Origin: [Phormidium] sp. LEGE 05292
GTDB lineage: Bacteria; Cyanobacteriota; Cyanobacteriia; Cyanobacteriales; Aerosakkonemataceae
Assembly: GCF_015207735.1 (NCBI RefSeq)
Contig: NZ_JADEWG010000035.1
Span: 1 to 54,436 of the forward strand
Length of the DNA: 54,436 bases
Direction: 5' to 3'
The notes beneath the pieces are model-generated. The model was not told where the DNA came from and ran no database searches. It worked only from the letters and a program-made list of their open reading frames with translations. Made by a program: the position numbers and the translations under genes. Below, one piece after another: positions 31,620 through 45,926 of this stretch (positions are counted from its first letter, which is position 1; each line of letters begins with the position of its first letter).

Positions 31620-33150
31620 ATAATGAACTACCCCGCCGTATAGACGGACGGGGTTTCTGAAATCCCATCCGACTTCCGACAAGATTTTTGACGTTTCATT
31701 TGCCCAAGTTGCTGCATTGAGCCAGTATGCTTACGCTTTCGGGTCAAATTAGTAGAGCTTAGACATCCGCAGTCTTCGAGGCTCGTTCCAAACCCCGGTT
31801 GCGCCTTTGTTGCAACATTATACATAACCATCACAGAACCTTTATCACGAGGTATTTCAAAACCACAAGCATCGCAGATATGATATCGATTCGATAACTC
31901 TGCCCAATGCTTGTGGACAACTCCGCATTCAGGACAACGCTGTGATGGTTTTATTTGTTTTGTAGGTAGTATCAACATCAACCCTCCCTTCTGCTCAATT
32001 TTGTAGGCAATCATTTTATTGAGCGCCCCAAAACCAACAGAAAGGATAGATTTATTCAATCCGGCTTTTTGTTTTTTGCGTTTACTACCTTTCTTAGCTT
32101 TGCGCGTCATACCCTTAGTATTAAGCTGCTCTGTCACACCGATGTCATAACGACTAGCAATATCTGATGTGACTTTATGTTGCCAATTTGAACGCTGGTT
32201 GGAGACTTTTCTTTGTAGTTTAGATATTTGTTTTCTAGCTTTCTTCCAACGTCTAGAACCTTTAATTCTTTTACTCCTATTTGGGGCAACTTTCCGCCGC
32301 AAAGCCTTAGATTTCCGCTTGATTTTCTGCTCAGATTTCTGAGTAAAACGAGGGTTTTCTAATTCAGTAAACTCTTCTCCGTCATAGAGAGTTATGGCTG
32401 TTTGGGTTCCTAAGTCAAAAGCAACAATTGATTCATAACTCAAATCCGATTGAGAACCAAATTTACATTCAACAGTGGGAATATCAACAGTTATAGATGT
32501 GAACCACTGATTTCTACCTGGTTTGTACGCAATGGTTAAAGTAGTAGGAATCCCCCACTGTTTAGCTTTACCACGCATTTTGATCGTAATACCTAAATCG
32601 TTGAGGGTAACGCTACCATGTTTGCCATTGCTATTAACTTTCCATCCAGATTTAGCTGGATAACTCCAGCCGGAATAATTACGAATTGATTTGAACTTAG
32701 GTAATCTTCTTAATCCTTGAAAGAATCCACCATAAGCTAAATCAACCCGTTTTACAGTGGCTTGCAAAGATTGAGAGTGAAGATCAGCAAATTCAACCCA
32801 TTCTTTCTTGAAAGCTGGCAGACAATTCTGCTGCTCAAAATAGGTGACGGTTTTCTTGTTTGCTCTCCACTTATAACGACGGTGAGCAACGCAAGCATTG
32901 TACAAGTAGGCATGATTGCGACGTGCAACAAATAGTTGATTCTCTTGAGTTTTGTTTGGATACAGTCGAAATGTTTGTCTTCTTGTGGTCAAGCGTTACT
33001 CACCTCCTTTGTTTATGTCACTAGATATTTTCAGATACAAATCAGAGATCGAAAAGGCATTATTGGGGTAAGGCGAAACTGTCGCATGATTCCAAGTGTA
33101 TAGTTTCCTGGAGTGGCGCTCCATTGCAAATAGTCAAAGATTACATTTGT
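31620..33150 (-). mobile_element. Solitary tnpB element, IS605/IS1341 type
   Basis: The element consists of tnpB without tnpA. The right end is a hairpin CCCCGCCGT/ACGGACGGGG at about 31631-31653 overlapping the tnpB 3' end. The left end is probably near 33110-33150, where GGAGTGGCGCTCC can fold. Ends of this family carry subterminal hairpins and no target duplication, so exact borders cannot be fixed. It lies between the PP2C gene and the NfeD gene. Confidence 0.65.
31628..32992 (-). CDS. tnpB: TnpB RNA-guided nuclease (OrfB of IS605/IS1341 element)
   Basis: 454 aa. The start is TTG 32992: the perfect AAAGGAGGTG lies 8 nt upstream and there is no better ATG. N-terminal RQTFRLYPNKTQENQLF is typical. 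RuvC residues look intact: D in IVAFDLGTQTAITLYDG, E in IGVTEQLNTKGMTRK, and D in CGFEIPRDKGS. The zinc ribbon CPEC...CDAC is present. The last residues (ISETPSVYTAG) are the translated right-end hairpin. TnpB cuts DNA guided by an omega RNA transcribed from the element's right end. With no tnpA nearby, movement would depend on a transposase in trans. Confidence 0.93.
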   Translation of the reverse strand: MTTRRQTFRLYPNKTQENQLFVARRNHAYLYNACVAHRRYKWRANKKTVTYFEQQNCLPAFKKEWVEFADLHSQSLQATVKRVDLAYGGFFQGLRRLPKFKSIRNYSGWSYPAKSGWKVNSNGKHGSVTLNDLGITIKMRGKAKQWGIPTTLTIAYKPGRNQWFTSITVDIPTVECKFGSQSDLSYESIVAFDLGTQTAITLYDGEEFTELENPRFTQKSEQKIKRKSKALRRKVAPNRSKRIKGSRRWKKARKQISKLQRKVSNQRSNWQHKVTSDIASRYDIGVTEQLNTKGMTRKAKKGSKRKKQKAGLNKSILSVGFGALNKMIAYKIEQKGGLMLILPTKQIKPSQRCPECGVVHKHWAELSNRYHICDACGFEIPRDKGSVMVMYNVATKAQPGFGTSLEDCGCLSSTNLTRKRKHTGSMQQLGQMKRQKSCRKSDGISETPSVYTAG

Positions 33151-33375
33151 AACCAATCAGGTGGCAGATGGGAAAAGTTAGGGGGTCGGACTCCCTAACT
33201 TTTCCCCGCTATCCATCCCCACCCTATAGAGGTATAGGGAATTTCGCGGTTTTGTGAAATCAGAGTGTGTCTCAAAAAGTTACATTTTCTTACGGAAAAG
33301 ACATAAATAAAGTGATGTAGTCAACAAATCTTTGGATTTTTTTCCATCTTATCTGCCTCTGAGAATAATTACTTC
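32993..33375. other. 383-nt gap: element left end, hairpin, promoter region
   Basis: Bases 33001-33010 are the tnpB ribosome site (minus strand). About 33010-33150 is probably the left end of the tnpB element. A long hairpin follows at 33170-33207. The last 160 nt before the NfeD gene are AT-rich and hold its promoter. No tnpA or other gene is present on either strand. Confidence 0.65.
33170..33207. repeat. GGGAAAAGTTAGGG hairpin
   Basis: A long inverted repeat with arms GGGAAAAGTTAGGG and CCCTAACTTTTCCC around 'ggtcggact'. It is stable enough to be an RNA hairpin, but no U-tract follows on either strand and it does not directly follow a gene. I record it as a dispersed-type palindrome with unknown role. 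Confidence 0.6.
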
Positions 33376-33942
33376 ATGTTAACTATAAAAGTACAGGCAA
33401 TGAATATCAATATGCTTTTGGATGATTTATTCATGACATTAGTTGCAACTAGCAACTATTCACTACCAACTACCGAGTATCATTCGCTGATGGGATTAAT
33501 CGCAACGGTAGCGTTATCGTTCACCATCAGTCCTAGTTTACTTTGGTTATTGTTTGGGGCAGGGCTGTGTTTGGTGGAATTCGTTTTACCTACAGCTTAT
33601 ACTGCGGTGATTATGGGAGTAGCTGCGATAATTGTAGCTTTAGTTGCTCCCTTAATGCCGTCGCCTATTTTACAGGTTATACTCTGGTTACTGCTTTCGG
33701 TAGCTTTACTTTTGCTTTTCCGTCGCTTGGCACCAAAACGGAAAACATCTGCTATTAGGGATGCAGTAGAAGCGCAAACAATCAGCGAAATTTTGCCCGG
33801 ACAAACAGGAAGAGTTTTATACGAAGGGAATTCATGGCGGGCGCGTTGTAGTGATGAAACAAAAGCGATCGCACCTAATGAAAAAGTTTACGTGATCGGC
33901 AGAGAAGGCACAACTTTAATTGTCTTACCCGATAAATTGTGA
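33376..33942 (+). CDS. NfeD family membrane protein
   Basis: 188 aa from the first ATG; starts at 33400 or 33490 (MGLIATVALS) are possible and would fit the usual short NfeD length better. Three to four membrane segments lie at about 40-118 (SPSLLWLLFGAGLCLVEFVL and PILQVILWLLLSVALLLLF). A C-terminal OB-fold follows: LPGQTGRVLYEGNSWRARC, then IAPNEKVYVIGREGTTLIV. NfeD proteins pair with SPFH/stomatin proteins, and one follows after 36 nt. They probably form a membrane microdomain or protease-control complex. Confidence 0.88.
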   Translation: MLTIKVQAMNINMLLDDLFMTLVATSNYSLPTTEYHSLMGLIATVALSFTISPSLLWLLFGAGLCLVEFVLPTAYTAVIMGVAAIIVALVAPLMPSPILQVILWLLLSVALLLLFRRLAPKRKTSAIRDAVEAQTISEILPGQTGRVLYEGNSWRARCSDETKAIAPNEKVYVIGREGTTLIVLPDKL

Positions 33943-33978
33943 AACAACAAATTCCCCAACAACAAAGAGGATAAAAAA

Positions 33979-34953
33979 ATGGAATCATTTTTTGCTTTCA
34001 TCATATTTCTAGTTTTAGGCGGTTCTGCGGTTTCAAGTACAGTTAAAGTGATTAATCAAGGGAATGAAGCCTTAGTAGAATCTTGGGGTAGATACAATGG
34101 AAAAAAATTACAACCTGGTCTAAATTTTGTGGTTCCGGTGGTCGATCGAATTGTTTATAAAGCCACAATTCGGGAAAGAGTTTTAGACATTCCCCCCCAA
34201 CAATGTATTACCCGCGATAACGTTTCAATTACTGCGGATGCTGTAGTTTATTGGCGGATTTTAGATTTGGAAAAAGCTTACTACAAAGTGGAAAATCTCC
34301 AATCAGCAATGGTGAATTTAGTGCTGACTCAAATTCGATCGGAAATGGGCAAATTAGAATTAGATGAAACCTTTACCGCTCGTTCTCAAATTAATGAAAT
34401 CCTCTTGCGCGATTTGGATGAAGCTACCGATCCTTGGGGAGTTAAAGTCACTAGGGTAGAATTACGAGATATTGTTCCTTCTAGGGCAGTTCAAGAATCA
34501 ATGGAATTGCAAATGTCTGCGGAACGGAAAAAACGGGCGGCAATTCTCACATCTGAAGGGGAAAGAGAAGCTGCAATTAATTCTGCCAGAGGTAGAGCCG
34601 AAGCGCAAGTTTTAGATGCAGAAGCACGGCAAAAAGCGGTGATTTTAGATGCAGAAGCACAACAAAAAACCATTGTTTTAAAAGCCCAAGCGGAACGCCA
34701 GCAACAAGTTTTGAAAGCCCAAGCTACAGCAGAAGCTTTGCAAATTATCAGTAAGATTCTGCAAACTGATCCCAATGCGAAAGAAGCTTTGCAATATTTG
34801 ATTGCTCAGAATTATTTAGAAATGGGAACAAAAATTGGTAGCAGCGATAGCAGCAAGGTAATGTTTATGGACCCCCGGAGTATTCCCGCTTCTTTAGAAG
34901 GAATGAAAGCTATTGTCGGGGATGTAAATAATGGAGGAGTCAAGGGAAGTTAG
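33979..34953 (+). CDS. SPFH/band-7 protein (stomatin/paraslipin type)
   Basis: 324 aa with 'gagg' 12 nt before the ATG. One N-terminal membrane segment (about 4-22), then the SPFH core: [51 protein letters not shown] and VYWRI. A long coiled coil of Ala/Glu/Gln repeats (about 200-260; [17 protein letters not shown]) and the C-terminal [13 protein letters not shown] complete it. Such proteins form ring-shaped cages at membrane microdomains and control membrane proteases. The NfeD partner gene is 36 nt upstream, so this is a standard NfeD-SPFH operon. Confidence 0.93.
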
Positions 34954-34973
34954 GAATCTAAACCAGGATTTAT

Positions 34974-35023
34974 GGATTTACATGATAATCAGGATTGATT
35001 AATTCTGATTATCATGTAAATCC
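34974..35023 (+). terminator. Long hairpin after the SPFH gene
   Basis: A 19-bp perfect inverted repeat GGATTTACATGATAATCAG / CTGATTATCATGTAAATCC with a 12-nt loop starts 21 nt after the SPFH stop. It is placed as a terminator for the NfeD-SPFH operon, though no strong U-tract follows. 'ccccagtccccagtccc' heptamer repeats follow at 35039-35066. Confidence 0.6.
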
Positions 35024-35086
35024 TAGTCAAAATTTCCCAGTCCCCAGTCCCTAGTACCCAGTACCCAACAAGGAGGTGAAATTTAA

Positions 35087-35725
35087 ATGTTTGCTGTTGT
35101 GACACCAGAAAAAATTCATTTGCCTCCAGGGGCAATTTTAAGACTACCTGGGAGTTGGGAAGATTATCAAAAATTGGTTGAGCAGTTGGGCGATCGATCT
35201 ATCCCCCGCATCAAATATCGACCCGGAGAAATTTTGTTAATGTCACCTCTACCTATTCATGGACGTGAAGCCAATATAATCGCAGATGTAGTCAAGGTTT
35301 TACTCGATTATTTAGAGCGAGATTACGAGGCATTTACTCCAATTACAATGGATTTGCCCGAAATTAGGGGAATTGAACCAGATTACTGTTTTTATATTGA
35401 TAATTGGGCGGCTGTTGCAGGTAAACCTCGGATTAATTGGGGTGTCGATCCATCTCCTGATTTAGTAATAGAAATAGATGTGACTACTTACACTGATATA
35501 AATGATTATTTGCCCTACAAAGTGCCGGAAGTTTGGATATATAAAAGGAAAGGTTTGGTGATTTATAACTATGGGGAAGAAGGCTATGAAGTTGTCAATA
35601 ACAGCCACTATTTTCCCACGATCAATATATCAGAAATTTTGGTAGAGTGTTTTCGGGTGGCTGGCGATCGCAATACCAGCACAGCCATTCGCAACTTACG
35701 GCAAAAATTAGCGAGTGAGAAATAA
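35087..35725 (+). CDS. Uma2 family endonuclease (PD-(D/E)XK)
   Basis: 212 aa with a perfect 'aaggaggtga' 6-8 nt before ATG 35087. Uma2 landmarks: WEDYQKLVEQLGDRSIPRI then YRPGEILLMSPLPIHGREAN, with IRGIEPDYCFYI and PSPDLVIEIDV carrying the acidic residues of a PD-(D/E)XK nuclease core. These genes are numerous in cyanobacteria and their cellular role is unknown. Here it is monocistronic and convergent with the gene at 35819. It lies close to two more PD-(D/E)XK-type genes (mcrC and the DUF4351 gene). Confidence 0.92.
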   Translation: MFAVVTPEKIHLPPGAILRLPGSWEDYQKLVEQLGDRSIPRIKYRPGEILLMSPLPIHGREANIIADVVKVLLDYLERDYEAFTPITMDLPEIRGIEPDYCFYIDNWAAVAGKPRINWGVDPSPDLVIEIDVTTYTDINDYLPYKVPEVWIYKRKGLVIYNYGEEGYEVVNNSHYFPTINISEILVECFRVAGDRNTSTAIRNLRQKLASEK

Positions 35726-35740
35726 GCTATTACCAATTAA

Positions 35741-35815
35741 TATCATGTCCGGTCGATCGATCTTAATATCCTTTTTCCAACACCCTGTAGAGACGTTGTA
35801 TACAACGTCTCTACA
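35741..35815. mobile_element. MITE F, truncated copy with GTAGAGACGT palindrome
   Basis: Left end TATCATGTCCGG (35741-35752), then 'cttaatatcc' and the palindrome with arms TGTAGAGACGTTGTA / TACAACGTCTCTACA at 35786-35815, as in the full copy at 28951. The right terminal repeat is missing; the sequence runs into the stop codon of the next gene. It lies between two convergent genes and may terminate both. Confidence 0.78.
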
Positions 35816-35818
35816 TTC

Positions 35819-36205
35819 CTACGCTTTCTCGGTGTGATTAATAACAACCTTATGTGGTAAAGGACTTTCTCCATTTTGAAATTTTTCAAACAACTCAAAA
35901 AACTTATCTAAAGCATCTCTTTCATCTGCTGAATAAAAGAGAATAATACTATCCCATCCGTGAGATGAAGTAATATTAAATCTTTCCTGTACCCACTCTT
36001 GAAACCCGTTAAATTCTTGTTCTTGATTTGTTCGAGGTAAGCCAAGTTCCATTCTAGCCATACCATATCCGTCTAACAGCATTCGCAGACGGGTAATTGA
36101 ACATTTACCTAAATACATACCCGGTCTTTGCTTAATTCTTTCTAGCAGCTCGTAGAGATATTCAGTCTTGACAGATAGAACGTTTTGAGTAACTTCTGTA
36201 GTCAT
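35819..36205 (-). CDS. Conserved-looking small protein of unknown function (RPGMYLG motif)
   Basis: 128 aa, soluble. I do not recognise a named family. It has a distinctive LLERIKQRPGMYLGKCSITR motif at about 20-39, followed by LRMLLDGYGMARMELGL, then FNGFQEWVQERFNITSSHGW and a C-terminal helix DALDKFFELFEKF. Proteins with 'RPGMYLG...L..FL.GY...' and an 'F..W...RF' pattern occur as possible immunity-type or orphan genes, so that is a weak idea only. It is divergent from mcrB, 289 nt away, and could be a companion of that system or unrelated. Confidence 0.7.
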   Translation of the reverse strand: MTTEVTQNVLSVKTEYLYELLERIKQRPGMYLGKCSITRLRMLLDGYGMARMELGLPRTNQEQEFNGFQEWVQERFNITSSHGWDSIILFYSADERDALDKFFELFEKFQNGESPLPHKVVINHTEKA

Positions 36206-36494
36206 AAATTTATTACCTTTTAAAAAGATTCTTCTGTTATTTGGAACTGCTGACCATATAATATTTTACTATGAAATTGCAAATTTGCCAGCCATTCATT
36301 TTGAGGTATTCCTATCGTAAATTTTTGCTTTCATCTTTTTTGTTATACTCTGCAATGTGGAAATCTACGGGTACTATAAGCTACGCTAGGTTATGAGATC
36401 TGCTGAGGTAGGGTAGAGTAGATGGTGCGATCGCACTTTTTACCTCTTAGCCAGTAACTCGATTTATTAATCAAGAGTAAAGTTAGGAGGCTTA

Positions 36495-38534
36495 ATGCAA
36501 AATTGGTATCCTTTCGATAAATCAGTTCATGATTTAACTATTGATGATTTGCATAAATTGGTTGATGACAAAGTAAAAGCTGGTTATTACATTGAATATC
36601 ACAACATTTCTGATAATGAAACAGATCTGATGCGAAAACCCAAAATTAATAAAATTGTTAGAGCCATTACTTCTTTCGCCAACACTAAGGGCGGCTGGTG
36701 TATTTTAGGAGTCAATGCAGATAATAAGTATGGCACTATGAGTCTGAAAACAGGAACTACTTTAAAGCAAATTAATGCGTATTATAACAGTATTAAAAAG
36801 CAAATTGATAGCGAACTTTTTAGTAAAATAGAGCGAAGGGATATACCATTGGAAAATACGGTTCAGAGTAACTTGGTTTCGGTTATCTATATTCCGTGTC
36901 AATCAGGCAAAGAATTTGTTTTTAAAGACGATAATAATGGTGAGCGAATTTATCGTAGATTTAATGACGCTTTTGTTCCATTTCCAGATATTCGCGGTCG
37001 AACGGTTCAACCGTTTTATCAATACCATCGCATAGAGGATATACCTGAGCAAATAAATGAAATCAAATCAACATTTAATCAAGAGCAACATGAAGTGTTT
37101 TTAAAAATAAAAAACATTTGGCGATTACGTGAATTTCATCAAGATAATGAATTTAAAATTGAAAAATTAAATGAATTAAAGGAATATATACAACCCCAAA
37201 AAACCGAGCAAATTATAGTTTATAATATCGATGGCTTTCTTGTTTTAGTAGATGGATTTTACAGAGTTGCTGCTAGTATAGAGGCTAATTTAGAGGAAAT
37301 CTGTGCTACTGTTAAAGTGGGTACAAGAGAAGAAGCACTACAAGAAAGCTGTACGGCTAATAAGGAAAAAGACAAAGAAAGATCGGATGCCACTAGGGTT
37401 CGTACTCTTGAAACTTATTTGGCAGCTAAAGGCGATTCTATTAACGACCCATTTAATTACTCAAACGTTTATACAGCCATTGGCATAAAACAAAAATTTA
37501 TAAAAGGACATAAAGAATACATCAACAATAAAATAAATAATAATAACCAGAAGGAAGTATTGATCCTGCCTGATATAACTCAAAAATTTGCTTTTCCAGA
37601 GAATGAACTAGATCGATGGATACGAATTATTGAACGTAAAAAGCAAGTGATTATATATGGCCCACCAGGTACAGGTAAGACATTTTTGGCAAAAGATTTA
37701 GCTAAACACTTAACTAAAACTGGGGACGAGGGCAAGGGCACTCGCTGGGATATAGTACAATTTCATCCATCCTATTCTTATGAAGATTTCATCCAAGGTA
37801 TTCGTCCTGAAATAGTTAAGGAAAAATCTCAAGATGAACCAAGTACAGATGAGCAATTATCAAGAGAAGTTAATGGGCAAATCAAATATAAATGGGAAAA
37901 GGGTAGATTTCGGAAATTCTGTAAAAAAGCTGAATCTCACAAAGGTAAGCCTTGTGTTTTAATTATTGATGAGATTAACCGCGCAAATCTTTCTAGCGTA
38001 TTTGGTGAGTTAATGTATTTGCTTGAATATCGTGATGAAGAAATACGACTAGCTGGCAATGGCAAACTATTTGGAATACCGGAAAATGTTCGGATTATTG
38101 GTACTATGAATACAGCCGATCGCTCTGTCTCTCCCATAGATAATGCTCTGCGACGACGCTTTGCATTTCTTCATCTTCCTCCAAACCCTGACATTTTGGA
38201 TTTTTATTATAAGGGAACAAACTTTCCTATAGATGACTTAAAATATGCTTTAAAGTATATCAATGACCGAATTAAAAATGACAACTTTCAGCTGGGAGTC
38301 TCTTTCTTTTTATTGGATAAAACACTTTTGAACAAAGAACTTGATAAAGAAAGCTACATTGCCCACATTAAGGATATATGGGAAATGGAAATTACGCCCT
38401 ATCTCAAAGATAATTCATTTATTCTTAATGAGGAACTAAATAAGTTGATATTGGATGAGAAGTTGACATGGGATGAGATCAACCAAATTTGTAAAAAAAT
38501 AAAGAAATCTGATGGTTCCAATACAAACAGTTGA
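36495..38534 (+). CDS. McrB-like AAA+ GTPase with AlbA_2 and ParB/Srx-like N-terminal domains
   Basis: 679 aa, with 'aggagg' 6 nt before the ATG. Residues about 25-165 resemble a Schlafen AlbA_2 domain: AITSFANTKGGWCILGVNAD at 57-76 and a late GERIYRRFNDAFVPF. Residues about 200-330 resemble a ParB/sulfiredoxin-like domain: DGFYRVA at 253-259, then EEICATVKVGTREEALQESC. The AAA+ part has Walker A GPPGTGKT at 389-396, Walker B LIIDEINRAN with D492/E493, the McrB motif MNTADRS at 538-544 and ALRRRF. McrB GTPases drive McrC to cut foreign or modified DNA; the N-terminal parts normally read the target. It overlaps mcrC by 23 nt. I find no GCGATCGC in the gene, unlike its surroundings, which suggests transfer. 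Domain names other than McrB come from motif reading. Confidence 0.9.
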   Translation: MQNWYPFDKSVHDLTIDDLHKLVDDKVKAGYYIEYHNISDNETDLMRKPKINKIVRAITSFANTKGGWCILGVNADNKYGTMSLKTGTTLKQINAYYNSIKKQIDSELFSKIERRDIPLENTVQSNLVSVIYIPCQSGKEFVFKDDNNGERIYRRFNDAFVPFPDIRGRTVQPFYQYHRIEDIPEQINEIKSTFNQEQHEVFLKIKNIWRLREFHQDNEFKIEKLNELKEYIQPQKTEQIIVYNIDGFLVLVDGFYRVAASIEANLEEICATVKVGTREEALQESCTANKEKDKERSDATRVRTLETYLAAKGDSINDPFNYSNVYTAIGIKQKFIKGHKEYINNKINNNNQKEVLILPDITQKFAFPENELDRWIRIIERKKQVIIYGPPGTGKTFLAKDLAKHLTKTGDEGKGTRWDIVQFHPSYSYEDFIQGIRPEIVKEKSQDEPSTDEQLSREVNGQIKYKWEKGRFRKFCKKAESHKGKPCVLIIDEINRANLSSVFGELMYLLEYRDEEIRLAGNGKLFGIPENVRIIGTMNTADRSVSPIDNALRRRFAFLHLPPNPDILDFYYKGTNFPIDDLKYALKYINDRIKNDNFQLGVSFFLLDKTLLNKELDKESYIAHIKDIWEMEITPYLKDNSFILNEELNKLILDEKLTWDEINQICKKIKKSDGSNTNS

Positions 38535-39696
38535 GATAGAAGAATATCAAGATATAATGTTTAATCACGATTATTTGGATCGTGCCTGGAATTTATTGTG
38601 GGAGAAATATCAAAAAGAAGTTGAAGTAGACTTTCCCTCACCAAAAACAAAAAATAAATGGAAAATAAAATCAAAGGGATGGGTAGGCTATATACCATTA
38701 ACTCCAGAAATTATCCTCTACTTAAAACCGAAAGTAGAAGTAGGGAATATTTTCAGAATGTTGGAGTATGCTTACAAATTTGATGATTTGGAATTTGGGA
38801 AAGGATACATAAATTGTGATAAAATAGAAGATATTTACAGTCACATAGCCAACTTACTGGCTAAACGAATTATAGACAGAGAAAGTCAAGGATTATACCG
38901 CGCTTATGTGCCAAAAACAGATTATTTAACTTTTGTTCGCGGACGAATAGATATACAAAATGCTATTAAAAAACCTTGGAATATTAAGCTGAAATGCCAC
39001 TACGACGAACAGACAGTTGATATTGAAGATAATCAAATACTTGCTTGGACACTTGATATTATTATTAATAGCAGTTTGTGGACAGAACAGGTTCCAGTTC
39101 CACCATCAGTCCGCCAAGCATATCACGCTTTACAAGGATTAGTGACGCTCAAGGAATTTCAGCCAGAAGATTGTATTGGAAGAATTTACAATTATCTTAA
39201 CCAAGATTATCAATTATTACATTCACTCTGCCGATTCTTTGTCGAAAGTGCGGGGCCAAGTCATCAAATAGGCGATCGCACCATGCTACCCTTTCTAATT
39301 GACATGGCAAAACTTTATGAACTTTTTGTCGCCAAATGGCTAGAAAAAAAACTGCCATCTCACCTATTTTTTAAACGTCAGGAACCGATAAATATTAGCA
39401 GTAATATAACATTTATACCAGATATAATTCTCTACGAAGCTTTAACTGAAAAAGCACGCTACATACTTGATACAAAATACAAAACTCCTGATTCACCAGC
39501 AGCCAAAGACGTGGCACAAGTTATCGCTTATGCTGTTTCTAAAGAATGCCAAGAAGTAATTTTAGTTTATCCAACTTCCCTTAAGTATCCGTTAGATACG
39601 TTGATTGGAAATATCCGAGTTCGTAGCCTAACCTTCTCTTTAGATGGCAACCTTGAAGATGCTGGTAAAAGCTTTTTAAAAGAGTTATTTTTCTAA
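38512..39696 (+). CDS. McrC-like 5-methylcytosine restriction subunit, PD-(D/E)XK nuclease
   Basis: 394 aa. The N-terminal half resembles McrC stalk regions: GWVGYIPLTPEIILYLKPKV, then MLEYAYKF and RAYVPKTDYLTFVRGRIDI. The C-terminal nuclease has PDIILYE with D304 and YILDTKYK with D320-x-K322, followed by the Q in DVAQVIAYA. McrC cuts DNA once stimulated by McrB hexamers and its GTPase activity. The start overlaps mcrB by 23 nt; the ATG at 38557 is an alternative. No methyltransferase or third gene is next to it, as expected for a type IV system. Confidence 0.9.
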   Translation: MVPIQTVEIEEYQDIMFNHDYLDRAWNLLWEKYQKEVEVDFPSPKTKNKWKIKSKGWVGYIPLTPEIILYLKPKVEVGNIFRMLEYAYKFDDLEFGKGYINCDKIEDIYSHIANLLAKRIIDRESQGLYRAYVPKTDYLTFVRGRIDIQNAIKKPWNIKLKCHYDEQTVDIEDNQILAWTLDIIINSSLWTEQVPVPPSVRQAYHALQGLVTLKEFQPEDCIGRIYNYLNQDYQLLHSLCRFFVESAGPSHQIGDRTMLPFLIDMAKLYELFVAKWLEKKLPSHLFFKRQEPINISSNITFIPDIILYEALTEKARYILDTKYKTPDSPAAKDVAQVIAYAVSKECQEVILVYPTSLKYPLDTLIGNIRVRSLTFSLDGNLEDAGKSFLKELFF

Positions 39697-39830
39697 CTAT
39701 GAAAAAGATTGATTTAGGTGTTAGACGGTTGGCGGATAAGTTTATTAATAAGCGATCGCTTACTTTGGGAACAATTAAGCGATCGCCTTTTGAATAAAAT
39801 GAAAGTTTTGCCACAAGTTCAGCTTTGAAT

Positions 39831-40394
39831 TTAGGAATTTGGTTGTGCAAATCTAGCTAAAAGTTCCTCACGGGATAATTGCAGCAGCAAGGGAGTAAAC
39901 TCTTCTGGTGGTAATAATAGTAGGCGATCGATTACAGATGAAAGTTCTGCATCTAAAGAACCAAAGCGTACTCGCAACAAGTTCTCCACCACCAAGCGTT
40001 CTCCCTCCTGAACTCCTTGCTGCATTGCTTGTTCTCGATCTTGCTGATAAAGGGGTGCTAATCTCATAATTAACTCTCGATCTTCTTCGTCTTGAACTTG
40101 ATTTGCTTCTCGGCGCAATTCACCTCTGACTTCTAATATTTTTAACAAACAATCGCCTATTTCTTCGTCGCTTGCTGCATTGCGATATGGTTCAAAAATG
40201 GAGATACTGGTTGCCAATCTTCCTAGTAAACCTAAATCTTCTGGAGGTGAGTTTGGCTGAGAATTGGGAGCAAACCAAACATCGATTTCTCTGACTTCTC
40301 CAGCTACTCTGCGAGGTGCTTGAACTACTCCGTAAGGTGTTAGTAATTTCTCTAAGTAATCTTTGGCAAATTGATCGTGAATAAATCGGGTCAT
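39831..40394 (-). CDS. DUF4351 family protein, internally shortened
   Basis: 187 aa. The start MTRFIHDQFAKDYLEKLLTP and VAGEVREIDVWFAP are those of long cyanobacterial DUF4351/Rpn-related proteins, and so is the end RFGSLDAELSSVIDRLLLLP then EEFTPLLLQLSREELLARF (DUF4351). Between them the usual stretch of well over 100 residues is missing: LLKILEVRGELRRE is followed almost directly by DEEDRELIMRLAPLYQQ. The frame is intact, so a short protein is made. The family has a PD-(D/E)XK-like core and unknown role. Whether this one is active is doubtful. Confidence 0.82.
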   Translation of the reverse strand: MTRFIHDQFAKDYLEKLLTPYGVVQAPRRVAGEVREIDVWFAPNSQPNSPPEDLGLLGRLATSISIFEPYRNAASDEEIGDCLLKILEVRGELRREANQVQDEEDRELIMRLAPLYQQDREQAMQQGVQEGERLVVENLLRVRFGSLDAELSSVIDRLLLLPPEEFTPLLLQLSREELLARFAQPNS

Positions 40395-40488
40395 TGGGTG
40401 TAGATTTGGCAGGAATTTGACCTATTGATTCAATATTTTATCAGAGGACATAGAAACTCCTTTAGCGATGATGTTATTTTTAATAATT

Positions 40489-40917
40489 TTAAGCTGGATC
40501 TAAACCTAATCGATCTTCACTATTACCAGAAACTTGCGCTGCTTGACAGATGTTGCACAGTCCAAAAAACTCCAATGTGTGATAGTAAATCTTAAATTTG
40601 TAAGAATTGTGCAGTTGAGTTTCTAATTCTTGAACTGGACATTTATCTAATGAAATAGATTTGCCACATTCTAAACAAGTAAGATGGTGCTTGTCTTGCT
40701 GAGTACAGCTGTAAAGTGATTCGCCGTTGGATAGCATTCTTACCTGAAGTGCGCCTTCTCGTTTCAACGCTTCTAAAGCACGGTAAACTGTAGCCAAGCT
40801 CATGCCTTGGTTCTGATTTCGCAATTCTACATAGATATCCTGGGCGGAAATTGCTCGGTTGACGCTTTGGAGAAAATTTAATATTCTTTTTTGACTGCGT
40901 GTGTGTTGTGTTTTCAT
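40489..40917 (-). CDS. zur: Zur/FurB zinc-responsive repressor
   Basis: 142 aa, Fur family. N-terminal winged helix: RSQKRILNFLQSVNRAISAQ and SLATVYRALEALKREG. Structural zinc cysteines CLEC (HHLTCLECGKSISLD) and CNIC near the C-terminus, with the metal-binding HHL, and FKIYYHTLEFFGLC. The wording of these motifs is that of cyanobacterial FurB, which is the zinc regulator Zur, rather than FurA or PerR. It represses zinc uptake genes when zinc is bound. No target gene lies beside it; purS is divergent, 145 nt away. Confidence 0.88.
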   Translation of the reverse strand: MKTQHTRSQKRILNFLQSVNRAISAQDIYVELRNQNQGMSLATVYRALEALKREGALQVRMLSNGESLYSCTQQDKHHLTCLECGKSISLDKCPVQELETQLHNSYKFKIYYHTLEFFGLCNICQAAQVSGNSEDRLGLDPA

Positions 40918-41062
40918 TCGTATAATCCCAGTTTGAACCAGATCTATGCCTTTTTTCTACCCTATCTCAAATAGCTTAGTTATTAGATTAACCATCGGGT
41001 GTCGAGTACCACTCTAAAATAAAAAGGCTGGCACATTAACTATTATCGGTGAGGATAGGATA

Positions 41063-41338
41063 ATGAAATATCATGCTCGCATCTATGTTACTCTGCGACC
41101 TTCGGTTTTAGACCCTGCTGGTGTGGCGGTGCAGTCGGGGTTGAAGCACATGGGTTATGAGAATGTGGAACAGGTGAGAATAGGAAAGTACATTGAATTA
41201 AATATCACTGCTGAGTCGGAAGATGCTGCAAAACAGCAGCTTGATATAATTTGCGATCGCTTATTGGCAAATGTGGTAATCGAAAATTATCGCTTTGAGT
41301 TAACTGAGGTGTCTACTCCTGTGGAGGCGAAGGTATGA
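41063..41338 (+). CDS. purS: Phosphoribosylformylglycinamidine synthase subunit PurS
   Basis: 91 aa, the normal length. [20 protein letters not shown] and the '[11 protein letters not shown]' strand are PurS signatures. PurS bridges PurL and PurQ in the FGAM synthase complex, step four of purine synthesis. It overlaps purQ by 4 nt (ATGA). 'gaggatagg' 4-12 nt upstream of the ATG serves as ribosome site. Confidence 0.95.
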
Positions 41339-42006
41339 AGTTTGGGGTGTTAGTTTTTCCGGGTTCAAATTGCGATCGCGATGTCCTTTATGTGACTCGC
41401 GATTTGCTCAAGCAACCAACTAGAATGGTTTGGCATGAGGAAACGGATATTTCGGATTTAGATGTGGTGATTGTTCCGGGCGGTTTCAGCTACGGAGATT
41501 ATTTGCGTTGTGGTGCGATCGCTCGTTTTTCCCCAGTAATGCAAGCTACAGTGGAACACGCAAACAAAGGTAAGTTGGTGTTGGGTATTTGCAATGGTTT
41601 CCAAGTGCTGACTGAGGCGGGTTTGTTACCTGGGGCGTTGGTGAGAAATCGAGATTTGCATTTTATTTGCGATCGCATTCCCTTGCGTGTTGAACGCACA
41701 GATACACCTTGGACGCAATTATATCAAAAAGCCGAAGTGATAACTTTGCCGATCGCTCATGGTGAAGGAAATTATTACGCCGATGCTGATACTTTGGCAC
41801 GTTTGGAAGATAACGGTCAAGTATTGTTCCGTTACGAAGGTGAAAATCCCAACGGTTCTTTAAATAATATTGCTGGGATTTGCAATGAGAAAGGAAATGT
41901 GTTGGGAATGATGCCACACCCGGAAAGAGCATCCGATAAAATGTTAGGGGGAACCGATGGATTTAAGTTGTTTGAAGGGTTGTTGAAAGTAGCAGTGGGA
42001 GTGTGA
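41335..42006 (+). CDS. purQ: Phosphoribosylformylglycinamidine synthase subunit PurQ
   Basis: 223 aa. Class I glutamine amidotransferase: [17 protein letters not shown] at the start, the oxyanion [15 protein letters not shown], catalytic Cys in [14 protein letters not shown], and the His/Glu pair in MPHPERA. It supplies ammonia from glutamine to PurL in the same complex as PurS. It is cotranscribed with purS; purL must be elsewhere. Confidence 0.96.
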
Positions 42007-42123
42007 TAGTAGGCAGGAAAATTGATGGATGAGATAAGGCAGAAAGCAGAAGGGAAGAGGGTTTTAGATAAATTTACGCTTCGTCACTTCTGTTTATTTC
42101 CGCCTTTCTACGATTACCGATAA

Positions 42124-42153
42124 TGTAGAGACGTTATATATAACGTCTCTACA
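42124..42153 (+). terminator. GTAGAGACGT palindrome between purQ and cheB
   Basis: Perfect palindrome with arms TGTAGAGACGTTATA / TATAACGTCTCTACA between two convergent genes, 118 nt after purQ and 6 nt from the cheB stop. It is placed to terminate transcripts from both sides. The fifth copy of this family in the window. Confidence 0.6.
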
Positions 42154-42158
42154 AGGTT

Positions 42159-43310
42159 TTAATTACTCCCAGTTACTATGTTCAATTGTTTGAGTAACAT
42201 TGAGGCAATTTGATTAACTGGTAAAATGTGTTTGGCGGCACCTAAAGCGATCGCTTCTTTTGGCATTCCAAACACTACACAGCTTGCTTCATTTTGAGCA
42301 ATAGTTATACCTCCAGCTTGTGCGATCGCGAGCATTCCATCAGCACCATCGCGACCCATACCTGTTAATAAAACCGCAATATTTGCTGCACCATAACATT
42401 TAGCTACAGAAGCAAAAGTAACTGAAACTGAAGGACGATGACCAGAAACAGGCGGCGAATTATTACAAAGAAATCTGCCTAAACTATCTAATTCTAAATG
42501 TCTACCTTCAGGAGGAAAATAAATTACTCCGGGTTGAGGTAGTTCACCAAATTTAGCAATCTTTACTGGTAGCTGACATTCGGATACTAACCAATCTACT
42601 AAACCCTGCAAAAATCCCTCACTAATATGTTGGACGCAAAGAATTGGTAAGGGGAAATTTGTTGGTAATTGAGATAATATATTATTCAGTGCTTGTGGCC
42701 CACCAGTAGAAGCACCAATAGAGACAATTTTAGGTTTAGAATAATGAGTTTGAGATGGCAAATTAATTGCCATATTTCGAGAAATGGGAATATTTGTTTT
42801 AGTTTCTAACTTAACTGGTTGGCGATCGCCTTCAGGAGTGCGCGTAGTGCGATCGACTGATGTTGTAATATTACTATGGCGGCGGTGTCTAGTAAATACA
42901 GTCACACCAGAAAGAATTTTGATTTTGCTAATTAACTCCTGTTTGAGCAATTCATATTCTTCAACTGATGGACAGCGAGGTTTAGGAAAAACATCAACTG
43001 CACCCGCATTCAGCATTTTAAAAATAGTTTGAGTATCTTCCACTTGAACAGAAGCACTAATTACCAAAATTGGTCGAGGAAACCGCATCATTACTTCTTC
43101 AGTAAATTCTAACCCATTCATTTGGGGCATATGATAATCCGTACAAATGACCTGTGGCTGAAGTTTAGGAATTAATTCTAAGGCTTCTCGACCATGACGA
43201 GCAGTACCCACAACTTCGATATCTGGAGATGCGGCTAAAATGCGTTTCAGGATTACCAATGCTACTGGTGAATCTTCAACTAATAAAACTCGAATTGGCA
43301 TTTTGTTCAT
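42159..43310 (-). CDS. cheB: Chemotaxis methylesterase CheB
   Basis: 383 aa. N-terminal receiver with D58 in ICTDYHMPQMNG, a linker of about 45 residues, and the methylesterase: catalytic Ser in IVSIGASTGGPQ, His in CVQHISEGF, Asp in LLTGMGRDGADGM. It removes methyl groups from, or deamidates, chemoreceptors once phosphorylated by CheA. It is the last gene of the cluster. ATG 43310 lies inside a heptanucleotide repeat; the ATG at 43301 (MPIRVLLVEDS) is an equally good start. Confidence 0.95.
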   Translation of the reverse strand: MNKMPIRVLLVEDSPVALVILKRILAASPDIEVVGTARHGREALELIPKLQPQVICTDYHMPQMNGLEFTEEVMMRFPRPILVISASVQVEDTQTIFKMLNAGAVDVFPKPRCPSVEEYELLKQELISKIKILSGVTVFTRHRRHSNITTSVDRTTRTPEGDRQPVKLETKTNIPISRNMAINLPSQTHYSKPKIVSIGASTGGPQALNNILSQLPTNFPLPILCVQHISEGFLQGLVDWLVSECQLPVKIAKFGELPQPGVIYFPPEGRHLELDSLGRFLCNNSPPVSGHRPSVSVTFASVAKCYGAANIAVLLTGMGRDGADGMLAIAQAGGITIAQNEASCVVFGMPKEAIALGAAKHILPVNQIASMLLKQLNIVTGSN

Positions 43311-43355
43311 TTGTCATTTGTCATTTGTCATTCGTCATTTGTCATTTGTTATTGG
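43307..43355. repeat. Heptanucleotide tandem repeat TCATTTG x6-7
   Basis: Six near-perfect TCATTTG units (43307-43348), one being TCATTCG, followed by a degenerate TTATTGG. 'tgactaatcactgatgactaatgacta' repeats follow to 43393. Similar 'tcatttgtcaattgtca' appears at about 20532. This is a short tandemly repeated repetitive sequence of the kind common in filamentous cyanobacteria. It fills the gap between cheA and cheB and includes the annotated cheB start codon. Confidence 0.85.
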
Positions 43356-43394
43356 TCTTTTTGCTCATGACTAATCACTGATGACTAATGACTA

Positions 43395-45926
43395 TTAAAC
43401 TAGTCTTCTGAGTGTATCTAATAACACCTGCTGGTTAAAAGTGCCTTTGGTAATATAGGCATTTGCACCTGCTTGTGCACCCCTTCTTTTGTCTTCATCG
43501 CTGGCTAAGGAAGTTACCAAAATAATCGGTAATTCACTATATTCTTTATTTTGGCGAATTTTGGCGGTGAGTGATAAACCATCTAAATTCGGCATTTGAA
43601 TGTCGGAGACTATAGCATCATAAGAGCGAGATTTTAATTTGTTAAGCGCATCCATACCATCGACGGCAGTTACGACTTCATAACCTGCTCCTTCTAGGAT
43701 ACGTTTTTCTTGGGTACGAATGGCGATCGAATCTTCTACCAGCAAAATAACTTGTTTGCGTTCTGCTAAAGGCTGGGATTTTACAGAGCGTCTTGCTACT
43801 TTTGACACCGTTTGCTTACGTACAGATTTAATTAAATCTTGAGGATTTAACACCATACAAACTTCGCCAGTACCCAATATCGTCGCACCAGAAACATTCC
43901 GCACCCGCTTGAGCAATTTGCCTTGAGGTTTGAGCATTACATCCTGTTCGTCTAGTAATGCGTCTACAATTAATCCCAAAGTAGCATCTCCTACTTTAAT
44001 GATAATGCAAGGCAAATGTTGAAAATTTGTCGTTGCTTGCTGAAGTGTCAGATTTCCCAATCCCTGGTGATGATTTATTTCTAGTAAATCAGCTAAGTGA
44101 GTTACAGAAACAGGTTGTAAATCGACAAGAATCGTATCTTGACCTTCAATAGGAAAAATATCTTCCTGTGTAATTAACCGCGCCATCATGACATATTCCA
44201 CAGGAATTGCATAAGAAATGTTATCGACTGAAACAATTAAGACGTGCGCTGTCGCTAAAGTTGTGGGTAACAACATCCGAATTGTACAACCCATTCCGAA
44301 ATTAGATTCTACTTGGATATTGCCTTTCAAATGTTCTACATTAGTCCGCACGACATCTAAACCTACACCCCTACCTGAAACTTCGGTAACAAATGTCCGA
44401 GTAGAAAATCCCGGTGTAAAAATTAAAGATTGTATTTGGGATGGTGTCATTGTGATCAGTTCTTCTTCACGACAAACACGGCGTTTTAATGCGGTTTCTT
44501 TAATTTTTTCAATATCTAATCCCCTACCATCATCAATAACTTCTATTACTACATTAGTAGTTGTTTGTTTAGCTCGCAGTACAATTGTTCCTTGGGGACT
44601 TTTACCGAGACGGCATCTTTCTTCTACAGTTTCAATTCCGTGATCGACACAATTACGAATCATGTGCATCAAAGGATCTTTCATTTCTTCAATGATGCGT
44701 TTATCGGCTTTAGTTTCCCCTCCTTCAATAATGAAATTAATTTCTTTACCTTGTTGTTTAGCTAAGTCTCGTACCATACGAGGAAATAAACTAAAAATAG
44801 TCGCTAATGGTAATAGTCGCAGAGTTCTAATCCCATCAGAAAGTTCATCAGAAATTACTTCTAGTCTTTGCACATCTTCGTAAAGGGAATTTCGTAATTT
44901 GTTAACTAGCATTCCCAGTTGTTCGAGGAATTTTTCTTTAGTTATGGATGAATCTTTTCTCAGAGCCAACTCGGAACTTTGTGGCAGCGAAAACAGAGAA
45001 GCCTCTACGGGAAAAAAGGCTGTTTGTGCTGATTCATTTTTGACTGTTCTTCTAGAAAATTGTGGTTTAATGCGGCTATATTCTTCACAGAAATTGGCGA
45101 TTTCTTCAATTTCTGCCAGTCGGTGATTAATCCGAATTTTGGTGACTGTAAGTTCACCTGCTTGAGTCATTAAAGAATCTAAATGCCGAGTTTCTACTCG
45201 GACGCTTTCAATGCGGTAAGTTTGCTCAGTGGGAGTTTTGCTTGTTGCATCTCTTAGTGGCTCTGGAGAGTTTTCTGAATTTGGAGAAAGGGTAAAATTT
45301 ACTTTATTTATTTCGGTGTTGACGGAAACTACGTCAGGTGGAATATTTTGGGGATTAACAGTTAGGGGGAGTTCTATTTCTGGGTCAATTACCTCTACAT
45401 CAGTTACAGTAATTGTTGTTTCTGAATCTGCTAAATTTTCCGATGTTTGCTCTACAGGTAAGCTGATTTCTTCTTCTTGAGTTTCTGCTGCTGTTTCTGT
45501 TTCTGATGATTGCTGATTTTCTGTTGAATTAGCTGAAGATTTTGGGCTATTTCCTCCCATCATATAGGCTAAGACATGGAAGGCATTAATGCGCGATGGA
45601 GTACCTGCAACGGCTTCTGCTACTAATTGGCTAATGGCATCTAATCCTTGATAAAGGCGATCGTTAACATCAGGCGATAGTTCTACTTCACTTCGTTTTA
45701 TTGTACCTAAAATATGCTCTAATTGATGGGCGAGAGTGGAGATATCTTTTAATCCCAACATCCCTGCATCACCTTTGAGACTATGTGCTTCCCGCATGAG
45801 TTCTTCTAAATTTGCTTGGTCGCATGGATTTTTTTCTAATTGCAGCAAGCCGTCTTCTAATTTTTGTAAATGTTCTTCACTGGCTGATTTAAAGATAACT
45901 CTAAGTTCTTCATCATCGATAAACAT
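43395..45926 (-). CDS. cheA: Hybrid chemotaxis kinase CheA with C-terminal receiver
   Basis: 843 aa. An Hpt domain with H48 in MREAHSLKGDAGML, an acidic Ser/Thr/Gln-rich linker (about 130-240), a dimerisation helix (RVETRHLDSLMTQAGELTVT), HATPase (HMIRNCVDHGIETVEER and the GRGLD box), a CheW-like regulatory domain with RVRNVSGATILGTGEVCMVL, and a receiver with D in IVSDIQMPNLDG. It autophosphorylates on the Hpt and phosphorylates its own receiver and CheB. The CheA-REC fusion is the usual cyanobacterial form in type IV pilus or phototaxis systems. No separate CheY is present. Confidence 0.95.
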   Translation of the reverse strand: MFIDDEELRVIFKSASEEHLQKLEDGLLQLEKNPCDQANLEELMREAHSLKGDAGMLGLKDISTLAHQLEHILGTIKRSEVELSPDVNDRLYQGLDAISQLVAEAVAGTPSRINAFHVLAYMMGGNSPKSSANSTENQQSSETETAAETQEEEISLPVEQTSENLADSETTITVTDVEVIDPEIELPLTVNPQNIPPDVVSVNTEINKVNFTLSPNSENSPEPLRDATSKTPTEQTYRIESVRVETRHLDSLMTQAGELTVTKIRINHRLAEIEEIANFCEEYSRIKPQFSRRTVKNESAQTAFFPVEASLFSLPQSSELALRKDSSITKEKFLEQLGMLVNKLRNSLYEDVQRLEVISDELSDGIRTLRLLPLATIFSLFPRMVRDLAKQQGKEINFIIEGGETKADKRIIEEMKDPLMHMIRNCVDHGIETVEERCRLGKSPQGTIVLRAKQTTTNVVIEVIDDGRGLDIEKIKETALKRRVCREEELITMTPSQIQSLIFTPGFSTRTFVTEVSGRGVGLDVVRTNVEHLKGNIQVESNFGMGCTIRMLLPTTLATAHVLIVSVDNISYAIPVEYVMMARLITQEDIFPIEGQDTILVDLQPVSVTHLADLLEINHHQGLGNLTLQQATTNFQHLPCIIIKVGDATLGLIVDALLDEQDVMLKPQGKLLKRVRNVSGATILGTGEVCMVLNPQDLIKSVRKQTVSKVARRSVKSQPLAERKQVILLVEDSIAIRTQEKRILEGAGYEVVTAVDGMDALNKLKSRSYDAIVSDIQMPNLDGLSLTAKIRQNKEYSELPIILVTSLASDEDKRRGAQAGANAYITKGTFNQQVLLDTLRRLV

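What the first reader, a model, noticed from the sequence alone, without database searches (positions are those of the whole stretch)
36495..39696. McrBC-type restriction module whose McrB has AlbA_2-like and ParB/Srx-like domains
Seen: a two-gene operon (23-nt overlap) with clear McrB GTPase motifs (GPPGTGKT, LIIDEINRAN, MNTADRS) and McrC nuclease residues (D304, D320, K322). The first 330 or so residues of the McrB are not a usual target-reading domain; they contain a Schlafen AlbA_2-like segment (SFANTKGGWCILGV) and a ParB/sulfiredoxin-like segment (DGFYRVA, VKVGTREEA). Known: McrBC are type IV restriction systems; AlbA_2 binds nucleic acid and occurs in Schlafen tRNA nucleases; ParB folds bind or hydrolyse CTP. 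Inference: recognition or activation here may involve RNA/tRNA or a nucleotide signal rather than only methylated DNA. Absence of HIP1 from mcrB hints at transfer.
Basis: partly seen in the sequence, partly recalled or inferred. Interest (0 to 1): 0.85.

Follow-up and report, generated by a model that had tools for sequence, protein, structure and literature searches.

The report
McrBC nuclease with swapped targeting head
A probable cyanobacterium carries a known kind of DNA-cutting defence machine whose usual target-reading head is replaced by two other nucleic-acid-binding folds, one related to chromosome-partition proteins and one to the antiviral Schlafen proteins; this suggests that such machines can be re-aimed by swapping heads.

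Summary
Window 36495-39696 encodes a McrBC pair: McrB 679 aa, McrC 394 aa, 23-nt overlap. McrB residues 1-360 are an unusual head. Residues ~1-165 pass Pfam's SLFN_AlbA_2 cut-off and model like Schlafen/SAMD9 structures. Residues ~196-355 model as a ParB/sulfiredoxin fold plus HTH-like region (Z 14 to ParB).

The functional inference is only partly supported. AlbA_2 lacks the first catalytic glutamate (A29; E in 20 of 20 relatives with a letter there) and the ExK lysine (H36), so tRNA cleavage is unlikely. ParB keeps GxxR, but its Box III-like stretch is eroded.

Among 134 distinct McrB-like ORFs checked, ParB occurs in two and AlbA_2 in one. The second ParB-McrB (same taxonomic family) shares 79% DNA identity from the GTPase through McrC but only 25% protein identity in ParB-HTH: a swapped or very fast-evolving head on a conserved motor. 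The locus sits in a ~5.5-kb block absent from that place in five of eight family genomes compared.

Best reading: a McrBC restriction system re-aimed by a ParB-HTH DNA-loading module with an AlbA_2 accessory. New variant of a known kind; target and nucleotide dependence untested.

The parts
36495..38534 (+). mcrB-like gene, 679 aa: AlbA_2 - ParB/Srx - HTH-like - AAA+ GTPase
36495..36989 (+). SLFN_AlbA_2 domain, residues ~1-165; catalytic Glu and ExK Lys replaced (A29, H36)
   Evidence: Pfam 31 bits over cut-off 25.3; model pLDDT 82.8, pTM 0.80; matches SLFN13 and SAMD9; residue counts
37080..37388 (+). ParB/sulfiredoxin-fold domain, residues ~196-298, with DGFYR (GxxR) kept
   Evidence: profile 61.3 bits; model pLDDT 83.5; Z 14.0 to ParB with a CTP analogue, tied with CDP-bound ParB
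37389..37559 (+). HTH-like helical region, residues ~299-355, as in ParB/Noc/KorB
   Evidence: helices in the model; longer matches to 8qa9, 6t1f, 5k5d, 7nfu
37603..38534 (+). McrB GTPase domain; start of the block with 79% DNA identity to the relative G004
38512..39696 (+). mcrC-like gene, PD-(D/E)xK nuclease (D304, D320, K322)
   Evidence: PF10117 1.9e-37; PDB McrC 4.1e-7
34961..40473 (.). block between a band-7 gene and a fur-like gene (names recalled), whose matches lie about 110-1,355 bases apart in five genomes of the family

Best explanation
This is a McrBC-type restriction system in which a conserved GTPase-McrC motor-nuclease has been given a different targeting head. Shown: the architecture AlbA_2 - ParB/Srx - HTH-like - McrB GTPase with McrC in the same operon, and a sharp change from a conserved motor to a non-conserved head. 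Inferred: the ParB-HTH part binds or loads onto invading DNA (a site, structure or modification), AlbA_2 adds nucleic-acid binding without cutting, the GTPase ring assembles and translocates, and McrC cleaves. It is probably mobile anti-phage or anti-plasmid defence.
For: Motor and nuclease motifs intact. Folds of both head domains. The ParB-HTH module recurs in stand-alone or fused proteins of viral contigs (201 stretches matched the pattern, 49 loci confirmed) and of three genomes (L018, L022, L024). A second McrB, in G004, has ParB but no AlbA_2. Window and G004 share 71% of GTPase and 75% of McrC residues but 25% of ParB-HTH; the DNA match begins at window 37603, at the GTPase. Other McrB readers are known to be exchanged (PMC12707154). 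Block absent from that place in five of eight family genomes. AlbA_2 catalytic positions changed.
Against: No activity data. The full architecture is known from one genome, so relevance rests on one open ORF plus one half-matching relative. The ParB tree does not show that the two heads share a fusion (clade test p-AU 0.209, very long branches). Nearly invariant H292/G293/D300 of relatives are K, D and T here, so the ParB part may be degenerate or bind no NTP. The target could be RNA or a protein.
Confidence: 0.5

Rival explanations
1. The ParB/Srx domain is a modified-base sensor with NTPase activity, like GmrS, BrxU or SspE, so this is a modification-dependent type IV enzyme built on a McrBC motor.
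For: ParB/Srx folds serve type IV enzymes (GmrSD, PMC4619093; PMC12839542). E. coli McrBC and several relatives read modified DNA (PMC12707154). SspE appears weakly in the fold list (Z 3.4).
Against: The motif is DGFYR, as in the phage-type ParB-HTH relatives, not the DGQQR/DGQHR of GmrS and its kin; the best fold matches are ParB, Noc, PadC and KorB.
Confidence: 0.2
2. An NTP-gated system: CTP (or ATP/GTP) binding to the ParB domain switches head dimers into a DNA clamp that licenses the GTPase motor.
For: D253, G254, R257 and A260, invariant in 40 of 40 relatives, are kept; the top fold matches are nucleotide-bound ParBs, CTP-analogue and CDP forms tied, which by itself shows no nucleotide; orphan ParB folds bind CTP, ATP or GTP and often lack Box III (PMC12704722).
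Against: Eroded Box III-like stretch (K292, D293, T300); no C-terminal dimerisation domain was seen, the GTPase follows instead; the paper says specificity cannot be predicted.
Confidence: 0.13
3. RNA- or tRNA-directed system: the Schlafen-like AlbA_2 binds or cuts RNA, as a trigger or a second effector.
For: AlbA_2 fold matches SLFN13, SLFN14 and the SAMD9 tRNase domain; some McrBC relatives are predicted to target RNA (PMC11090510).
Against: A29 replaces the Glu aligned with SLFN13 E205, and the ExK lysine is H36; the E205A mutant of SLFN13 was inactive (PMC5862951). The GTPase has NxxD, not the NxD of CoCoNuTs.
Confidence: 0.1
4. A decaying or chimeric gene in which a ParB gene and an AlbA_2 gene became fused to McrB without a selected function.
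For: Only one genome has the full form among those searched; the head is poorly conserved. The whole operon is AT-rich (GC 0.32 for residues 1-360, 0.33 mcrB, 0.35 mcrC, 0.40 window).
Against: 679 codons open, motor and nuclease residues intact, confident models of both head folds, and another genome with ParB-McrB.
Confidence: 0.07

Closest known systems
McrBC (E. coli, T. gammatolerans) and LlaJI-type McrBC relatives
   Same: McrB AAA+ GTPase with NxxD motif plus McrC PD-(D/E)xK nuclease in one operon; a variable N-terminal reader (SRA, YTH, EVE, B3 in known cases; PMC12707154)
ParB/Noc/KorB CTPase-fold proteins and phage-type ParB-HTH proteins
   Same: ParB/Srx fold followed by an HTH-like region, GxxR motif
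   Different: No C-terminal dimerisation domain seen; fused to a McrB GTPase; Box III-like residues eroded
Schlafen / SAMD9 AlbA_2 domains, bacterial Schlafens
   Same: AlbA_2 fold, FANTKGGW core, Pfam SLFN_AlbA_2
   Different: First catalytic Glu and ExK Lys lost; single AlbA_2 at the head of a McrB
GmrSD / BrxU / SspE
   Same: ParB/Srx fold inside a type IV restriction enzyme
   Different: No HNH family matched; motor and nuclease are McrB and McrC; DGFYR instead of DGQQR
CoCoNuT systems
   Same: McrBC relatives with unusual added domains, predicted to act on RNA
   Different: GTPase motif is NxxD, not NxD; different added domains

Membership tests
McrBC restriction systems | McrB AAA+ GTPase with Walker A/B and NxxD motifs | tested here: met
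   GPPGTGKT, IIDEINR, NTAD; PDB McrB E 3.4e-39; AAA_5 9.5e-25. NCBIfam's E. coli-type McrB model matches at 145.4 bits, far under its cut-off of 637
McrBC restriction systems | McrC with PD-(D/E)xK nuclease in the same operon | tested here: met
   PF10117 1.9e-37; D304, D320, K322; 23-nt overlap. NCBIfam's McrC model matches at 97.3 bits, under its cut-off of 338
McrBC restriction systems | known modified-base reader (SRA, YTH, EVE) at the McrB N-terminus | tested here: inconclusive
   the head was assigned to AlbA_2 and ParB folds instead; no reader family is among the 22 Pfam families at E <= 0.01
McrBC restriction systems | GTP-dependent cleavage and restriction of DNA | not testable with these tools
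   needs biochemistry
ParB-CTPase fold proteins | ParB/Srx fold | tested here: met
   Foldseek E 9.1e-6 to Noc; Z 14.0, rmsd 2.2, 95 residues to 7bnr; profile 61.3 bits; Pfam ParB_N itself under its cut-off
ParB-CTPase fold proteins | GxxR P motif (Box II) | tested here: met
   GFYR, residues 254-257; G254 and R257 invariant in 40 of 40 relatives; definition from PMC12704722
ParB-CTPase fold proteins | Box III-like stretch as in relatives (N..HG..R...D) | tested here: not met
   N289 and R296 kept; H292 (38 of 40) to K, G293 (40 of 40) to D, D300 (38 of 40) to T. Box III is often divergent in orphan ParBs
ParB-CTPase fold proteins | CTP binding and DNA clamping | not testable with these tools
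   needs assays
Schlafen AlbA_2 family | Pfam SLFN_AlbA_2 over the curated cut-off and AlbA_2 fold | tested here: met
   31.0 against 25.3 bits; SLFN13 E 6.4e-6; SAMD9 Z 10.7, rmsd 4.6, 157 residues
Schlafen RNases | catalytic E, E, D (SLFN13 E205, E210, D248) | tested here: not met
   A29, E34, N74 at the positions aligned by sequence; E at 29 in 14 of 14 and 6 of 6 relatives with a letter there; the third acid is not constant in bacterial relatives
GmrSD/SspE type IV enzymes | DUF262 (DGQQR) plus HNH nuclease | tested here: not met
   DGFYR; no DUF262 or HNH family among the 22 Pfam families of McrB at E <= 0.01, and McrC matches PF10117 alone
CoCoNuT | NxD GTPase motif | tested here: not met
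   NTAD is NxxD (definition from PMC11090510)

The most novel reading that the evidence does not exclude
A restriction machine with two nucleotide switches: ParB-HTH heads of the McrB ring load as NTP-gated clamps on phage or plasmid DNA (perhaps parS-like sites of invaders, since relatives of this ParB-HTH module are common in viral contigs), helped by a catalytically dead Schlafen AlbA_2, and this licenses GTP-driven translocation and McrC cleavage.
Probability: 0.12. Interest if true: 0.85.

Novelty: new variant of a known kind. Interest (0 to 1): 0.5.

Why it matters
It extends the list of target-reading heads placed on the McrBC motor (SRA, YTH, EVE, B3) with a ParB-HTH head, and with an AlbA_2 accessory in one case. 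Two related systems that share their motor and nuclease but not their heads give a natural pair for testing whether the head alone sets the target. If the ParB part binds a nucleotide, it would connect the CTP-switch field with type IV restriction.

Tried and rejected
HIP1 absence as a sign of transfer: rejected as uninformative; the empty place replaces it.

Single-protein scan of genome contigs found no relative. The second scan, with an alignment, used two short peptides and gave 27 loci of ordinary McrBs, none with a ParB or AlbA_2 head. Plasmids with the whole McrB: 312 records match, none in which one place covers 80% of the query. Plasmids with residues 179-362: 3 matches at E 1e-3 to 0.3, two of them annotated as methyltransferases. 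Phages with residues 1-362: none at E <= 1. Plasmids with residues 1-178: one match at E 0.1.

ParB tree: inconclusive on one fusion or two; both fused heads have very long branches.

PADLOC gave matches inside the GTPase region only for McrB (restriction, IetA, TRIP13 and other AAA models) and none for McrC. NCBIfam matched McrB and McrC models far under their cut-offs.

The PDB entry CbCash, an AlbA_2 match, could not be traced to a paper in the search made. In the VIA list SspE (Z 3.4) was low; this proves nothing.

Considered and left: an in-frame TTG at 37560 after GAAGGAAG, which could start a head-less short McrB like E. coli McrBs; not tested.
Full report
What is there. TAGGAGG stands five bases before the mcrB ATG, which favours a start that includes the head. 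McrB's second half matches solved McrB GTPases (E 3.4e-39) and McrC matches PF10117 (1.9e-37) and solved McrC (4.1e-7). Walker A, Walker B and NTAD, and McrC D304, D320 and K322, are present. That the host is a cyanobacterium is inferred: 41 HIP1 sites in the window (HIP1 as a cyanobacterial repeat is recalled) and Calothrix and Leptolyngbya plasmids as the best plasmid matches.

AlbA_2 head. Residues 48-155 match SLFN_AlbA_2 with 31.0 bits over a cut-off of 25.3. A model of residues 1-182 (10-row alignment) has mean pLDDT 82.8 and pTM 0.80. Foldseek's first 30 rows are Schlafens, SAMD9 and one bacterial AlbA_2-type protein (2kyy), best E 6.4e-6 to SLFN13. VIA-align gives Z 10.7, rmsd 4.6 over 157 residues to SAMD9 and Z 9.1, rmsd 3.6 over 125 residues to SLFN13, within SLFN13 residues 181-323; unrelated or only broadly similar rows (Alba, IF3) reach 7.2. 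In SLFN13, E205, E210 and D248 form the active site, and E205A and E210A were inactive (PMC5862951, passages read). A profile alignment places the E....E[FY]K of Schlafens on the same motif of bacterial AlbA_2. There the window has A29 where 14 of 14 relatives of its phylum and 6 of 6 viral relatives with a letter have E, and H36 where all 20 have K; E34 is kept. The third acid position is N74, which varies in the relatives too. The 14 are L023 plus 13 of the 30 loci fetched, those that a two-row profile found; the other 17 loci were dropped before the count. Three of nine viral rows had gaps at 29 and 36. AlbA_2 here is thus likely a binding module, not an RNase; this is inference.

ParB head. 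The window sequence alone scores under Pfam's ParB_N cut-off (14.8 against 26.3 bits, E 0.03); at E <= 1 ParB_N is found in 4 of 5 members of its alignment, the window counted, best E 1.7e-6. A profile of 40 viral ParB regions without the window scores it 61.3 bits; the best of 1000 shuffles of residues 1-362 reaches 8.7. The model of residues 179-362 (41 rows) has pLDDT 83.5, pTM 0.78. Foldseek matches Noc, ParB, KorB and sulfiredoxin (best E 9.1e-6). VIA-align gives Z 14.0, rmsd 2.2 over 95 residues to a M. xanthus ParB mutant with a CTP analogue, tied with CDP-bound ParB (13.8) and Noc (13.7); 136-153 residues align with Z 11.6-12.1 (rmsd 4.3-5.0) to 6t1f, 8qa9 and 5k5d, so the HTH-like region is included. 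D253, G254, R257, A260 and N289 are kept and invariant in 40 of 40 relatives; K292, D293 and T300 depart from H (38 of 40), G (40 of 40) and D (38 of 40). Kaljevic et al. (PMC12704722; [quoted passage not shown] McrB and AlbA have no hit in its main text. The 49 viral ParB loci come from a viral collection, so their being viral is by choice of collection; three genomes of the phylum also hold such ParBs (L018, L022, L024), one of them joined to a phage-type methyltransferase.

A natural comparison. In the family genome G004 the closest McrB (545 aa) is ParB-HTH-GTPase without AlbA_2, followed by McrC. GTPase identity to the window is 200 of 280 aligned residues, McrC 295 of 393, ParB-HTH only 38 of 152. 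At DNA level the two match at 79% from window 37603, the start of the GTPase, to 39696; no match to the head is listed for G004, in a list that is cut. The head is therefore either swapped or evolving much faster than the motor. A tree of 45 ParB rows could not decide between one fusion and two (p-AU 0.209).

Rarity. The head alone (residues 1-345) matched 4 of 386 genomes of the phylum including its own; in the other three the protein is ParB-like or AlbA_2 and does not match the GTPase part. With the ParB-McrB profile, 117 of 386 phylum genomes had some match, often to the AAA part only (the printed list is cut). With the full profile, 97 of 388 genomes of the order matched at E <= 1e-20; only G000 and G004 rows span the ParB region. 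The next earliest starts in that list are G606, G586, G626 and G495; their ORFs carry no ParB or AlbA_2 match, but that of G606 is cut by its contig's end. Over 134 distinct McrB-like ORFs from the loci held (133 plus the window), including 29 from the 27 loci, whose titles name other phyla, the ParB profile rings in 2 (window, G004) and the AlbA_2 profile in 1 (window); the next matches have E 1.5 and 1.6. Limits: 3 of the 133 are open at the edge of the locus on their N-terminal side, 22 show no P-loop pattern, and 10 of the 111 that do have fewer than 150 residues before it. A whole-genome survey of other phyla could not be made.

Where it sits. Eight family genomes were searched with window 32000-44000. 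In five (G002, G003, G004, G005, G007) the matches to the window's band-7 gene (33979-34953) and fur-like gene (40489-40917) end about 110 to 1,355 bases apart; in the window the genes are 5.5 kb apart with a Uma2 gene, a 128-aa ORF, mcrBC and a gene with a sub-cut-off DUF4351 match between them (the names band-7 and fur are recalled from the sequences). In G004 the gap holds a 160-aa Hsp20-like ORF (name recalled) and a 126-aa ORF, and its own ParB-mcrBC is on another contig (C38). In G001, of the same genus, and in G009 the two flanks lie on different contigs; for G006 only the band-7 side is in the printed list. So five support an empty place and three do not speak. This supports acquisition. 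The genome has a second McrBC with a head like that of the other McrBs seen here, beside an ASCH/PUA-like ORF (the ASCH name is recalled, not tested).

Literature. The McrBC census (PMC11090510; passages and section 6 read) started from nearly 34,000 homologues and leaves the branch of E. coli McrBC and others to a later paper; its main text has no hit for Schlafen, SLFN, sulfiredoxin or ParB, and its one 'AlbA' hit is an author name. Supplements could not be read. PMC12707154 (passages) lists SRA, YTH, EVE and B3 readers. PMC12839542 (passages) cites a preprint on bacterial Schlafens in anti-phage defence and describes ParB-HNH GmrSD. PMC4619093 (passages) describes GmrS as ParB/Srx. PMC3710099 (passages) describes ParB and Schlafen fusions with HEPN. 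PMC12458937 and PMC12851939 (passages) show nothing on this architecture. Four searches, for McrBC with Schlafen/AlbA (190 papers, 20 listed), McrB with type IV and AlbA_2 terms (166, 20 listed), ParB with sulfiredoxin, restriction and McrB (48, 20 listed) and McrB with ParB and Schlafen terms (2, both listed), showed no paper that describes an AlbA_2- or ParB-headed McrB, as far as titles, abstract starts and the passages read go.

Verdict. Observation confirmed, domain calls right, HIP1 argument uninformative, RNA-nuclease reading unlikely. Most likely a McrBC defence system re-aimed by a ParB-HTH head with a non-catalytic AlbA_2 accessory. It is a new variant of a known kind, rare in the genomes looked at, and it offers a clean test of head-driven targeting.

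Noticed in passing
G000:C45 (L026:3926-6753): The same genome has a second McrBC (531 + 411 aa) with a head like those of other McrBs seen here and a 161-aa ASCH/PUA-like ORF upstream (name recalled); 139 of 252 GTPase and 198 of 392 McrC residues identical to the window's system.
   Followed up: partly
34961-40473: Block between band-7 and fur-like genes, absent from that place in five family genomes; its Uma2, 128-aa and DUF4351-like genes match other loci of G003, G007 and G009, where some lie near each other and no mcrBC match is listed.
   Followed up: partly
35819-36205 (-): 128-aa ORF with no Pfam, PADLOC or NCBIfam match; relatives lie beside Uma2-like DNA in G003, G007 and G009.
   Followed up: no
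37560-37562: In-frame TTG shortly after GAAGGAAG, at the head-GTPase junction; might start a head-less short McrB.
   Followed up: no
L022 (G073:C20): ParB-like domain fused to a phage-type DNA methyltransferase (PHROG 359); the same ParB-HTH module meets methylases as well as McrB.
   Followed up: no
L058-L083 (mostly Bacillota by record title): 16 McrB-like ORFs longer than 880 aa have two GTPase-like stretches in one chain.
   Followed up: no
G029 and G030 (L113): 1126-codon open frames with an AlbA_2 match that, like the window's, lacks profile positions 1-18.
   Followed up: no
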